DNA of 64,000 nucleotides. It comes from Xanthomonas bromi (GTDB lineage Bacteria > Pseudomonadota > Gammaproteobacteria > Xanthomonadales > Xanthomonadaceae). The stretch covers positions 56,885-120,884 of the forward strand of contig NZ_FLTX01000040.1 in assembly GCF_900092025.1 (NCBI RefSeq), read 5' to 3'. The notes under the pieces were generated by a model. It ran no database searches. It saw only the letters and a list, made by a program, of their open reading frames with translations, and was not told where the DNA came from. This document shows, in pieces, positions 49,168-58,628 of this stretch (within the stretch, counting starts at the first letter, position 1; the number at the start of each line of letters is the position of its first letter). The translations under genes were made by a program, and so were the position numbers.

Positions 49168-49740
49168 CGATCCTGTGCCGGCCGCCGCGTGCTTGAGCGG
49201 TGCTCGGATTTGCGCTTCACGCCTTCTCCGACTGCGACAGGGACGAAGGGACAGGACGCGCGGCCAGCAGGACATCGGCGGGGGCGCCGATGGCGATGCT
49301 GCCGCCCTGCCGCAAGCCGCTGCACGAACGCGGCGCACGCTGGCTGCGCCTCCAACATGCCAGTGCACAGCTGGCACTGAGGGGCGCGGCGGCCAGAGAT
49401 CGATGCGCTAAACGATCGCCACCCGGCGTTCGCAATCGGCCGTGGTCTGCTCCAGCGCTCTCGCACGTCGCCACCGCTTGTGTGTCACGGCCGCTAGACA
49501 GGAGACAGTGCACCCCGGGGCGCCTTGCAGTGATCGCTCAGATGCCCAGCCTTGTTGGTCGCCGATCCATGCACCCCTGGCCGCGGCCAGGCACCCGCGA
49601 CTTCGTTTCAACATCCGAACCAAACATTCACTGCAGTACACCTGAAAAGTTATGTTATATCATTCCAATATTGATCCCGAGCGACGCCTGCCGTGTTGCA
49701 AGCACCCCGTCCGCGCGAGCGCGCTCCCGCCTCCGCACCG
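49168..49740. other. mutS-to-zinc-operon spacer with Zur box
   Basis: 573 nt. The first 470 nt show no gene on either strand. AT-rich sequence with the Zur box occurs at 49644-49666, the presumed promoter of the zinc operon. Confidence 0.55.
49644..49666 (+). promoter_or_regulatory. Zur box upstream of the zinc-import operon
   Basis: This 23-mer has 18 of 23 positions in common with the E. coli Zur box (GAAATGTTATAWTATCACATTTC, from memory), including the GTTAT-N-TTAT core. It is the most AT-rich point in a GC-rich spacer and lies 75 nt upstream of the first possible ORF and about 190 nt upstream of the ATPase gene. Predicts repression by zinc-loaded Zur. Confidence 0.8.
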
Positions 49741-49848
49741 ATGAAACCATGCGCCGACCCACTGCTGGTCGGCGCCCTCGTCCGGCTGGTCGGAGCGCTG
49801 CTGACAGCATCCGTGTTGTGGCTGGGCTATGCATGGGTGACGTCCTGA
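49741..49848 (+). CDS. Possible 35-aa membrane peptide leading the zinc operon
   Basis: A short frame starting ATGAAACCATGC with 35 codons. It starts M-K-P-C-A-D, then a hydrophobic run (LLVGALVRLVGALLTASVLWLGYAWV) long enough to cross the membrane once. GC3 is about 27/34. TGA is followed after 2 nt by the ATG at 49851, an in-frame start of the ATPase gene, so translation could be coupled. No clear Shine-Dalgarno lies upstream, and the frame could be chance. If real, it might be a small subunit or a leader controlling the operon. Confidence 0.4.
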   Translation: MKPCADPLLVGALVRLVGALLTASVLWLGYAWVTS

Positions 49849-50582
49849 GCATGCTGGCCTTGCACGCTCTCAGCCTCGGCTACGGTGCCCAGGTCACGCT
49901 GCACGACCTGCAGACGCGCCTCGTGCGTGGCAGCCTCACCGCGCTGGTCGGACCCAACGGTGCGGGCAAGACCACGTTGCTGCAGGCCATCGCCGGGGAA
50001 TTGCCGCCTCTGCGCGGACGCATCGAACGCAATGCCGGGCGCATGTCCTGGCTGCCGCAGCGTAGTGCGCTGGACACGCAGTTCCCGATCGACGTGCGCG
50101 GCTTCGTCGCCATGGGCCTGTGGCGCCGGATCGGCGCCTTGCGCGGGCTTGGAAGCGCCGACACCACGCAACTGGATCAGGCGCTGGAAGCGTTGGGCCT
50201 GTCTGCGCTTGCCCAACAGCCGATCGGCACCTTATCCGGCGGCCAACTGCAACGCGCCTTGTTCGCGCGGCTCTTGCTGCAGGACGCCGAACTGATCCTG
50301 CTGGACGAGCCGTTCACCGCCATCGACAGCCACACCACCGCCGACCTGCTGCGGCTGGTCCACCGCTGGCACCAGGAAGGCCGCACCGTGCTGGCAGTGC
50401 TGCACGATCTGGAAATGGTGCGGCAGCACTTTCCCGAGACCTTGCTGATCGCCGGTCGCCTGATCGCGCACGGGCCAACCTGCAGCGCGCTGAGCCCGCA
50501 GACCCTGGAACAGGCGCGGCTCGCCGCCGATGCCATGAGTGCGTCGTGGGCCACGCCGTCGCCACATGGGAGCCCGCGGTGA
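49833..50582 (+). CDS. znuC: Zinc/manganese ABC transporter, ATP-binding protein
   Basis: 249 aa. Walker A GPNGAGKTT, Q-loop WLPQRS, signature LSGGQLQR, Walker B LILLDEP and H-loop VLHDLEM. Energises the adjacent permease. Two starts are possible: ATG 49833 inside the leader frame, or ATG 49851 (243 aa), which begins where family members usually do and follows the leader stop by 2 nt. Its stop overlaps the permease GTG by 4 nt. Zinc rather than manganese is inferred from the Zur box and the COG0523 gene. Confidence 0.88.
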   Translation: MGDVLSMLALHALSLGYGAQVTLHDLQTRLVRGSLTALVGPNGAGKTTLLQAIAGELPPLRGRIERNAGRMSWLPQRSALDTQFPIDVRGFVAMGLWRRIGALRGLGSADTTQLDQALEALGLSALAQQPIGTLSGGQLQRALFARLLLQDAELILLDEPFTAIDSHTTADLLRLVHRWHQEGRTVLAVLHDLEMVRQHFPETLLIAGRLIAHGPTCSALSPQTLEQARLAADAMSASWATPSPHGSPR

Positions 50583-51457
50583 CCCTGCCCTGGCAACCGT
50601 TCCTGGACTACGTGTTCATGCAGCGCGCGTTGCTGGGCTGCACGGCGATTGCGCTGGGCGCCACTCCGATCGGCGTGTTCCTGATCGCACGGCGTATGAG
50701 CCTGATCGGCGATGCGATGGCGCACGCCATCCTGCCGGGGGCGGCGGTGGGTTTCGTGGTGTCCGGCTTGTCACTGGGCGCCATGACCCTGGGCGGCATC
50801 GTCGCCGGCCTGCTGGTGGCAGTGCTGACCGGTGCGGTGTCGCGCGCCACGCGCTTGCAGGAGGATGCCTCGCTGGCGGCGTTCTACCTGATCTCGCTGG
50901 CGCTGGGCGTGCTGCTGGTATCGCTCAAGGGGTCCAACGTGGACCTGATGCACGTGTTGTTCGGCAGCGTGCTGGCGCTGGACGACGCGGCGCTGTTCCT
51001 GCTGTGCACGATCGCCACGCTGACCCTGGGCGTGCTGGCGCTGCTGTATCGGCCGCTGGTCCTCGAATGCGTGGATCCGCAGTTTCTACGCACCGTCGGG
51101 CGCAGCAGCCTGGCCACCCACCTGCTGTTCCTGGCGCTGGTGGTGCTCAATCTGGTGGCCGGCTTCCAGGCCCTGGGCACGTTGATGGCGGTGGGCATCA
51201 TGATCCTGCCCGCCGCGGCTGCACGTTTCTGGGCCAGGCGCCTGGCGCCGATGCTGCTGATCGCGTTTGCCGTCGCGGTGCTGGCCTCGGTGGTCGGCCT
51301 GTGGCTGTCCTATCGCTTCGATCTGCCTTCCGGCCCCACCATCATCCTGGCCGCCGGCACCGTCTATCTGCTGTCCCTGCTGCTCGGCCCGGCAGACAGC
51401 CTGGCCGCCAACGCCCGACCGCGCCGGCAGCGTGCAGCAACCGGAGCCTCGCGATGA
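50579..51457 (+). CDS. znuB: Zinc/manganese ABC transporter, permease
   Basis: 292-aa ABC-3 family membrane protein with about eight hydrophobic helices; family segments RRMSLIGDAMAHAILPGAA, LGSNVDLMHVLFGS-like (here KGSNVDLMHVLFGS) and GTLMAVGIMILPAAAARFW. Starts at GTG 50579, which overlaps the ATPase stop (GTGA); ends in an ATGA overlap with the binding-protein gene. Forms the inner-membrane channel. Confidence 0.92.
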   Translation: MTLPWQPFLDYVFMQRALLGCTAIALGATPIGVFLIARRMSLIGDAMAHAILPGAAVGFVVSGLSLGAMTLGGIVAGLLVAVLTGAVSRATRLQEDASLAAFYLISLALGVLLVSLKGSNVDLMHVLFGSVLALDDAALFLLCTIATLTLGVLALLYRPLVLECVDPQFLRTVGRSSLATHLLFLALVVLNLVAGFQALGTLMAVGIMILPAAAARFWARRLAPMLLIAFAVAVLASVVGLWLSYRFDLPSGPTIILAAGTVYLLSLLLGPADSLAANARPRRQRAATGASR

Positions 51458-58147: not shown

Positions 58148-58556
58148 TCAGCCAGCACCCGTCGATCTCTTCGAAGGTGAACAAAAAGCGCGCGTGCACC
58201 GGTTCGCTGACGCCGTCGCGCTCGAACACGAAGGTATACAGCCCGCCGATCACCACCGTGCCCAGCCTGGCGCTGACCCGCTTCTTCTGCACGGTGATAC
58301 CGCAACTCAAACCGTCGGCGGCCAGGAACGTGGCGAAGTACGCACGGCGGTCCTCGTCGCGCCCGCGGATATCGTCCGACAGCGTCGGCACCAGGATGGC
58401 GTCCGGGGCGTACAGGGCGAGCACGGCGTCGATGTCGCGCCGACCCACCGTCTCGGCCCAGCGCAGCAACATCTTGCCGGCTTCGGTCAGGCAATAGGCA
58501 GCGGTGCGTTCGTCACCGGCAGGTCGGTGGTCGGCACGAAGGGCATCAGCGGTCAT
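58107..58556 (-). CDS. SgcJ/EcaC-type SnoaL-like protein under a Zur-like box
   Basis: 149 aa, NTF2/SnoaL fold (TIGR02246-like), resembling the CaMKII association domain: LRWAETVGRRDIDAVLALYAPDAILVPTLSDDIRG-type opening, then FEEIDGCWLITGHHSS near the end. No signal peptide. CAGGAG sits before ATG 58556. A Zur-type palindrome lies 50-72 nt upstream. Convergent with and overlapping the PepSY gene by 41 nt. A catalytic role is unknown; it might be a small-molecule-binding or isomerase-like protein needed in zinc starvation. Confidence 0.8.
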   Translation of the reverse strand: MTADALRADHRPAGDERTAAYCLTEAGKMLLRWAETVGRRDIDAVLALYAPDAILVPTLSDDIRGRDEDRRAYFATFLAADGLSCGITVQKKRVSARLGTVVIGGLYTFVFERDGVSEPVHARFLFTFEEIDGCWLITGHHSSRCSEVA

Positions 58557-58605
58557 CACAGGCTCCTGGTGGTCAAGCGCAATGCGGCGATCATGCCCTC
58601 GCACT

Positions 58606-58628
58606 CAATTGTTACTTTATAACATATT
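58606..58628 (-). promoter_or_regulatory. Second Zur-type box
   Basis: Core TGTTA-N5-TAACA at 58610-58624 is a perfect inverted repeat. The 23-mer shares about 16 of 23 positions with the E. coli Zur consensus. AT-rich island in a GC-rich region, placed where it would control the SgcJ-type gene. Confidence 0.7.

What the first reader, a model, noticed from the sequence alone, without database searches (positions are those of the whole stretch)
49644..58628. Coupled Zur-type zinc import operon spanning outer membrane to metallochaperone
The sequence shows seven genes on one strand, with six junctions overlapping by 4-14 nt (50579, 51454, 52410, 53372, 54394, 56657) after a strong Zur box. Parts: ABC importer, COG0523 GTPase, WD40 propeller, TonB siderophore-type receptor and PepSY protein. 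Each family is known, but this set as one translational chain, plus a convergent SgcJ gene with its own Zur-like box, suggests a complete zinc-scavenging system with unassigned parts.
Basis: partly seen in the sequence, partly recalled or inferred. Interest (0 to 1): 0.78.

Follow-up and report, generated by a model that had tools for sequence, protein, structure and literature searches.

The report
Zinc operon with a copper-type tail
A bacterial chromosome (Xanthomonas, by kinship) carries a run of seven tightly packed genes behind a conserved zinc-repressor-like site that likely forms a complete zinc-scavenging route, and its last two genes are relatives of a copper-chelate receptor and of membrane metal reductases, so zinc starvation would switch on equipment known so far from copper and iron uptake.

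Summary
The observation largely holds. Five of the six overlaps recur in relatives; the WD40-TonB one does so in only 4 of 6. The operon box is imperfect here, but a box precedes the first gene in 6 of 6 related operons; the SgcJ box is perfect in 8 of 8. The ABC importer is AztABC-like and holds the only ZnuA-type binding protein found in this genome; 32 of 35 genomes of the genus have none. COG0523 beside WD40 is a widespread pair (70 of 80 loci), in print since 2009. The new element is the tail: the receptor's nearest solved relative is the copper-chelate transporter CrtA (412 bits, next 189), with its essential histidine kept; the PepSY protein's only significant fold match is the reductase FoxB. 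Between mutS and katG the genus shows full operon, importer-less operon, SgcJ alone, or nothing. Best reading: a Zur-controlled zinc-scavenging locus that recruited a CrtA/CrpH-type pair. Which metal the pair handles is untested.

The parts
49649..49667 (+). Zur-like box of the operon, two overlapping imperfect copies
   Evidence: a box before the first gene in 6 of 6 operons
49693..49848 (+). likely small membrane ORF, 51 codons, stop 2 nt before aztA
   Evidence: in 3 of 3 full operons, no indel over the last 36 codons; no Pfam match; expression not tested
49851..50582 (+). aztA-like ABC ATPase
   Evidence: NCBIfam AztA 222 bits, cut-off 220; start from three-genome comparison
50579..51457 (+). 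aztB-like permease
   Evidence: NCBIfam AztB 271.9 bits, cut-off 280; Pfam ABC-3
51454..52413 (+). aztC-like zinc-type solute-binding protein
   Evidence: NCBIfam AztC 315.2 bits, cut-off 350; Pfam ZnuA; only ZnuA-family hit in the genome
52410..53375 (+). COG0523 (CobW-type) GTPase
   Evidence: Pfam cobW and CobW_C; solved relative YjiA
53372..54397 (+). WD40 propeller, no signal sequence seen by eye
   Evidence: model pLDDT 91, WD40 matches; COG0523 upstream in 70 of 80 loci
54478..56670 (+).
56657..58147 (+). PepSY_TM protein, CrpH/FoxB-like
   Evidence: Pfam PF03929 over cut-off, seven invariant His, FoxB the only significant fold match
58107..58556 (-). SgcJ/SnoaL-type gene, convergent, overlapping the PepSY 3' end by 41 nt
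58610..58624 (-). perfect Zur-type box of the SgcJ gene
   Evidence: perfect in 8 of 8 close orthologues

Best explanation
This is a metal-acquisition locus of seven overlapping or closely packed genes, probably eight, that is likely repressed by Zur while zinc is plentiful and would scavenge zinc when it is scarce. Likely order of events, all inferred: the CrtA-like receptor brings chelated metal through the outer membrane; the AztABC-like importer moves zinc into the cytoplasm; the COG0523 GTPase with its probably cytoplasmic WD40 partner hands zinc to client proteins. The PepSY_TM protein resembles di-heme membrane reductases. Zinc itself cannot be reduced, so I infer that this protein reduces a competing metal (copper or iron) on imported chelates, freeing the chelator and keeping Cu(II) out of the zinc-binding AztC. 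Shown by sequence: gene content and overlaps, the conserved boxes, the relationships to AztABC and CrtA, a fold match to FoxB, and the presence-absence series at mutS-katG. Not shown: expression, metal specificity, any biochemical activity.
For: A Zur-like box before the first gene in 6 of 6 operons, whether that gene is the ABC ATPase or COG0523; perfect Zur box at SgcJ in 8 of 8, its 15-nt core identical to that of the zrpW box shown to be Zur-repressed in Caulobacter (PMC4176598, passages). A Zur-type regulator is present: 110 bits to the Zur model against 22.8 or less to other regulators. AztA/B/C are the best NCBIfam models, far above ZnuABC. The only ZnuA-family protein found in the genome is here. 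COG0523 lies within 1.2 kb upstream of WD40 on the same strand in 70 of 80 loci, and an AztB- or AztC-like gene within 7.5 kb in 34 of 80. Receptor: CrtA 230.6 bits with one sequence (next 117, FhuA) and 412 bits with the profile (next 189); the equivalents of CrtA's E337, H358 and R395 are kept in 12 of 12 Xanthomonas-group receptors aligned. PepSY: seven invariant His in 29 rows; His192-435 spacing 243 against 244 for the functional H200-H444 of CrpH; FoxB is the only Foldseek match below 0.001. A gammaproteobacterial MAG (L006) has a distant TonB-PepSY pair in front of AztABC-COG0523-WD40.
Confidence: 0.55

Rival explanations
1. The receptor-PepSY tail is a copper-acquisition pair (CrtA-CrpH function) that has come under Zur control; it feeds copper to oxidases, not zinc to AztC.
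For: CrtA is by far the closest solved relative and its essential His is kept; CrtA genes are followed by PepSY_TM genes in more than 75% of loci (PMC12914433, section 4); the pair exists apart from Zur-like boxes in 6 species.
Against: A Zur-like box stands before 6 of 6 operons; three of six CrtA site residues differ. Copper control of the CruR type was not searched for; the small ORF at the head of the operon was not compared with CruR.
Confidence: 0.22
2. The tail imports cobalt chelates, cobalt standing in for zinc, as reported for the Zur-regulated PA2911-PA2914 and pyochelin in Pseudomonas aeruginosa.
For: Precedent (PMC11481552, abstract); in 6 of 6 species with the stand-alone pair a cation-efflux (CDF) gene follows on the other strand.
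Against: The receptor is nearer to CrtA than to a pyochelin-type receptor: 412 bits against 186.5 for the enantio-pyochelin receptor.
Confidence: 0.08
3. One reading: a plain zinc operon with an ordinary ferri-siderophore receptor and ferri-siderophore reductase.
For: NCBIfam's best receptor model is TonB-dependent siderophore receptor, 217 bits; FoxB is a ferrisiderophore reductase.
Against: That model's cut-off (223.5) is not reached; CrtA scores about twice any other solved receptor.
Confidence: 0.1
4. The operon box is a chance match and the operon is not under Zur.
For: 2 mismatches; the pattern alone gives 0.88 expected hits per window; the reversed control pattern gives 4 sites with at most one mismatch in the genome against 6.
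Against: A box before the first gene in 6 of 6 operons, perfect in two.
Confidence: 0.05

Closest known systems
AztABCD zinc importer (Paracoccus denitrificans)
   Same: AztA, B and C are the closest NCBIfam models; zinc-type ABC importer in an operon with a beta-propeller protein
   Different: AztD itself is not found; the propeller here is a different WD40 protein without a signal sequence seen by eye; AztB and AztC are below cut-off
COG0523 subfamily 5 with WD40 and znuABC genes (Haas 2009, PMC2770081)
   Same: COG0523 beside WD40 beside a zinc ABC importer, several members with predicted Zur sites
   Different: the words TonB and PepSY do not occur in that paper's main text; here both are in the same operon
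CrtA-CrpH copper pair (Bordetella; PMC12914433, PMC13038864)
   Same: receptor's nearest solved relative, receptor gene followed by PepSY_TM gene, invariant histidines
   Different: Zur-like box before the operon; joined to a zinc importer; 3 of 6 ligand-site residues changed
HiuABC (Caulobacter) and FoxB (Pseudomonas)
   Same: TonB receptor plus FoxB-like PepSY protein; HiuABC also has a small membrane protein (PMC13001220, passages)
   Different: iron systems, HiuABC Fur-regulated, for ferrioxamine; the small ORF here lies at the other end of the operon
Caulobacter Zur regulon (znuK, znuL, zrpW; PMC4176598)
   Same: Zur-controlled TonB receptors, a COG0523 gene likely cotranscribed with zrpW, same type of box
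   Different: several separate loci; WD40 does not occur in the main text

Membership tests
AztABCD | AztA, AztB, AztC over NCBIfam cut-offs | tested here: inconclusive
   222/220, 271.9/280, 315.2/350: one of three over
AztABCD | AztD present | tested here: not met
   no NCBIfam family for the WD40 protein; AztD model NF038015 finds nothing in the whole genome
ZnuABC | ZnuA, ZnuB, ZnuC over NCBIfam cut-offs | tested here: not met
   63.9/268, 91.3/284, 100.1/306
COG0523-WD40 pair | CobW domains with WD40 gene directly downstream | tested here: met
COG0523-WD40 pair | COG0523 belongs to Haas subfamily 5 | not tested
   no subfamily tree built
CrtA | closest to CrtA among solved receptors | tested here: met
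   9RVQ and 9RVX are the CrtA entries
CrtA | six conserved ligand-site residues | tested here: inconclusive
   E337, H358, R395 kept; Y130, W265, Q356 changed, in 12 of 12 Xanthomonas-group receptors; L006 keeps only E337
CrtA | followed by PepSY_TM gene | tested here: met
CrtA | imports copper chelates | not testable with these tools
   needs transport assay
CrpH/FoxB PepSY_TM reductase | PepSY_TM domain | tested here: met
   PF03929 32.2 bits, cut-off 28.8
CrpH/FoxB PepSY_TM reductase | four heme-ligand His at the FoxB positions | tested here: inconclusive
   seven His invariant in 29 rows (16, 142, 192, 253, 254, 277, 435); which four are ligands is my choice by spacing and analogy, no coordinates were compared
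CrpH/FoxB PepSY_TM reductase | FoxB fold | tested here: inconclusive
CrpH/FoxB PepSY_TM reductase | binds heme, reduces metal | not testable with these tools
   needs protein
Zur regulon | Zur-type regulator in the genome | tested here: met
   (110 bits from a 123-residue core; the cut-off for the whole protein, 167, is not reached by this piece)
Zur regulon | conserved Zur box upstream | tested here: met
   6 of 6 operons, 8 of 8 SgcJ
Zur regulon | zinc- and zur-dependent expression | not testable with these tools
   needs RNA

The most novel reading that the evidence does not exclude
Reductive metal sorting in a zinc pathway: a Zur-switched CrtA/CrpH-type pair pulls mixed metal chelates into the periplasm, and its di-heme reductase turns Cu(II) (or Fe(III)) into a form that AztC cannot bind, so that only zinc enters the AztABC importer and the COG0523-WD40 distribution pair.
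Probability: 0.2. Interest if true: 0.8.

Novelty: new variant of a known kind. Interest (0 to 1): 0.52.

Why it matters
If true, a zinc-starvation operon carries a membrane reductase for a metal that is not zinc, a concrete way for a cell to keep copper out of its zinc importer. The genus also offers a natural series (full, importer-less, SgcJ only, empty) at one chromosomal site, in a genus where 32 of 35 genomes have no ZnuA-type protein, so the parts can be compared.

Tried and rejected
WD40 as AztD: rejected by the NCBIfam AztD model; AztD was not among the 50 rows shown by each fold search, which excludes nothing. Sequence search for a PepSY structure with one protein and with the profile: nothing relevant; only the fold search found FoxB. 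Promoter scan of 49100-59400: 0 sites (1.0 in shuffles); terminators 5 against 4.4. Recent foreign origin by composition: operon G+C 68% against 65% in the window, third-position G+C 0.81-0.88 against 0.81-0.82 in mutS and katG, so no support. Simple vertical descent: mutS is 98% identical to L092's and 94% to L093's, yet WD40 is 66% and 69% identical, which points to exchange between lineages or uneven rates; no tree was built. WD40 in wider samples: 3 of 297 genomes of the family and 2 of 369 of the class, the own genome included in both; in these two calls only up to 7 and 5 candidates per genome were scored, so misses are possible; in the genus all candidates were scored, 4 of 35. The contig of the other class genome was fetched (L165) but not analysed; ZnuA loci L166-L172 were not read. 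Coding evidence for the small ORF is modest: third-position differences only slightly in excess, and one other forward frame is open; whether it is a regulatory upstream ORF like CruR (PMC12914433, passages) was not tested. SgcJ paralogues at 30-39% identity in other genomes were not examined for boxes. PMC2490734 (Xanthomonas campestris Zur targets) is not held, so its motif could not be compared. COG0523 subfamily, heme-site and zinc-site geometry were not computed. Paper searches. The four terms PepSY, Zur, TonB-dependent receptor and zinc occur together in one held paper, PMC4176598. For most listed papers I saw only title and the start of the abstract.
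Full report
What is there. The window lies in contig C30 of a 4.84 Mb genome. Between mutS (ends 49167) and katG (starts 59322) lie, on the + strand, an ABC ATPase, a permease and a ZnuA-family binding protein, a CobW-type GTPase, a WD40 protein, a TonB receptor and a PepSY_TM protein, and on the - strand a DUF4440/SnoaL-type gene. A 51-codon ORF with a hydrophobic stretch ends 2 nt before the aztA ATG; it is found in 3 of 3 full operons with no indel over the last 36 codons. I call it likely, not shown.

Junctions. Start codons at the 4-nt overlaps A-B, B-C, C-G are present in 3 of 3 full operons and G-W in 6 of 6; the 14-nt T-P overlap in 6 of 6. 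The W-T overlap is present in 4 of 6, and the aligned receptors suggest starts some 58-107 nt further on; here 54478. So the chain is tight but for that joint.

Regulation. The operon box differs from TGTTAYNNNRTAACA at 2 positions, and this pattern gives 3 hits in the window against 0.88 expected. The evidence is comparative: six operons (own, L090-L094) have a box 129-362 nt before their first conserved gene, with 2, 0, 0, 1, 2, 2 mismatches, whether that gene is aztA or COG0523. The SgcJ gene has a perfect box in 8 of 8 close orthologues, including two species without the operon. The Caulobacter zrpW box, Zur-repressed in reporter assays, has the same 15-nt core (PMC4176598, passages). The genome has a Fur and a Zur-type regulator. 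Its other three perfect boxes lie beside a 713-residue TonB receptor, an AmiC-type amidase, and between a ZigA-like COG0523 gene and a MerC-type gene, which fits a working Zur regulon. Against this, the reversed control pattern gives 4 sites with one mismatch or fewer, against 6.

The importer. AztA, AztB and AztC are the best NCBIfam models (222, 272 and 315 bits; only AztA passes its cut-off), far above ZnuABC. It holds the only ZnuA-family hit in the genome. In the genus 3 of 35 genomes have any ZnuA-family protein, and in a sample of the family 30 of 297. So a species with this operon likely has a zinc ABC route that most of its congeners lack.

COG0523 and WD40. Haas and colleagues wrote in 2009 that prokaryotic subfamily 5 COG0523 genes cluster with WD40 and znuABC genes and that several have predicted Zur sites (PMC2770081, passages). 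This part is therefore known. The WD40 protein is not AztD; its model (pLDDT 91) matches WD40 propellers, and I see no signal sequence by eye in the 32 aligned rows, so it is probably cytoplasmic, next to the GTPase.

The locus over the genus. Of 35 genomes: full operon 3, without importer 1, SgcJ alone 2, mutS-katG interval without any of these genes 26 (one of them, G285, with a broken mutS match and a longer gap), not assessable 3 (two contig ends, one genome without a mutS match). The receptor-PepSY pair occurs apart from this operon in 6 other genomes of the genus, with no Zur-like box of 2 mismatches or fewer within 700 nt upstream, between an AraC-type gene and a convergent cation-efflux gene in 6 of 6. 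In a gammaproteobacterial MAG (L006) a distant TonB-PepSY pair (TonB 33% identical) stands before AztABC-COG0523-WD40: the association has arisen more than once, or is old and much diverged.

Mechanism. I commit to a Zur-controlled zinc-scavenging locus in which the CrtA-like receptor is the outer-membrane entry, AztABC the inner-membrane step and COG0523-WD40 the distribution step. Since zinc is not reducible, a reductase needs another substrate; I infer a competing metal on imported chelates. The strongest rival is that the tail simply brings in copper. A cobalt reading has a precedent in Pseudomonas (PMC11481552, abstract). SgcJ's task is unknown; it is the most constant Zur-box gene of the locus and may act on its own.

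Novelty. The parts and the COG0523-WD40-ABC core are known. None of the titles and abstract openings listed by my paper searches describes a CrtA/CrpH-type pair joined to a zinc importer under a Zur-like box; I did not read most of those papers, and the library lacks most subscription journals. I rate it a new variant of a known kind.

Noticed in passing
   Followed up: partly
L101 5694; L102 205; L103 5903 (own genome): Three further perfect Zur-type boxes: at a 713-residue TonB receptor, an AmiC-type amidase, and between a ZigA-like COG0523 gene and a MerC-type gene.
   Followed up: partly
L134 and L135: SgcJ with a perfect Zur box between mutS and katG in two species that lack the rest of the operon.
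   Followed up: yes
many of L009-L033 (SAR11, SAR116 and other alphaproteobacterial genomes): COG0523-WD40 pairs beside a binding protein and permease and ATPase genes on the other strand.
   Followed up: no
L047 7954-8715 and L053 7806-8561: A gene that looks like a creatininase (by eye, motif recalled) directly upstream of COG0523.
   Followed up: no
G285 (L164); G312 (L137) and G309 (L160): mutS match broken in G285; katG match in two pieces in the other two.
   Followed up: no
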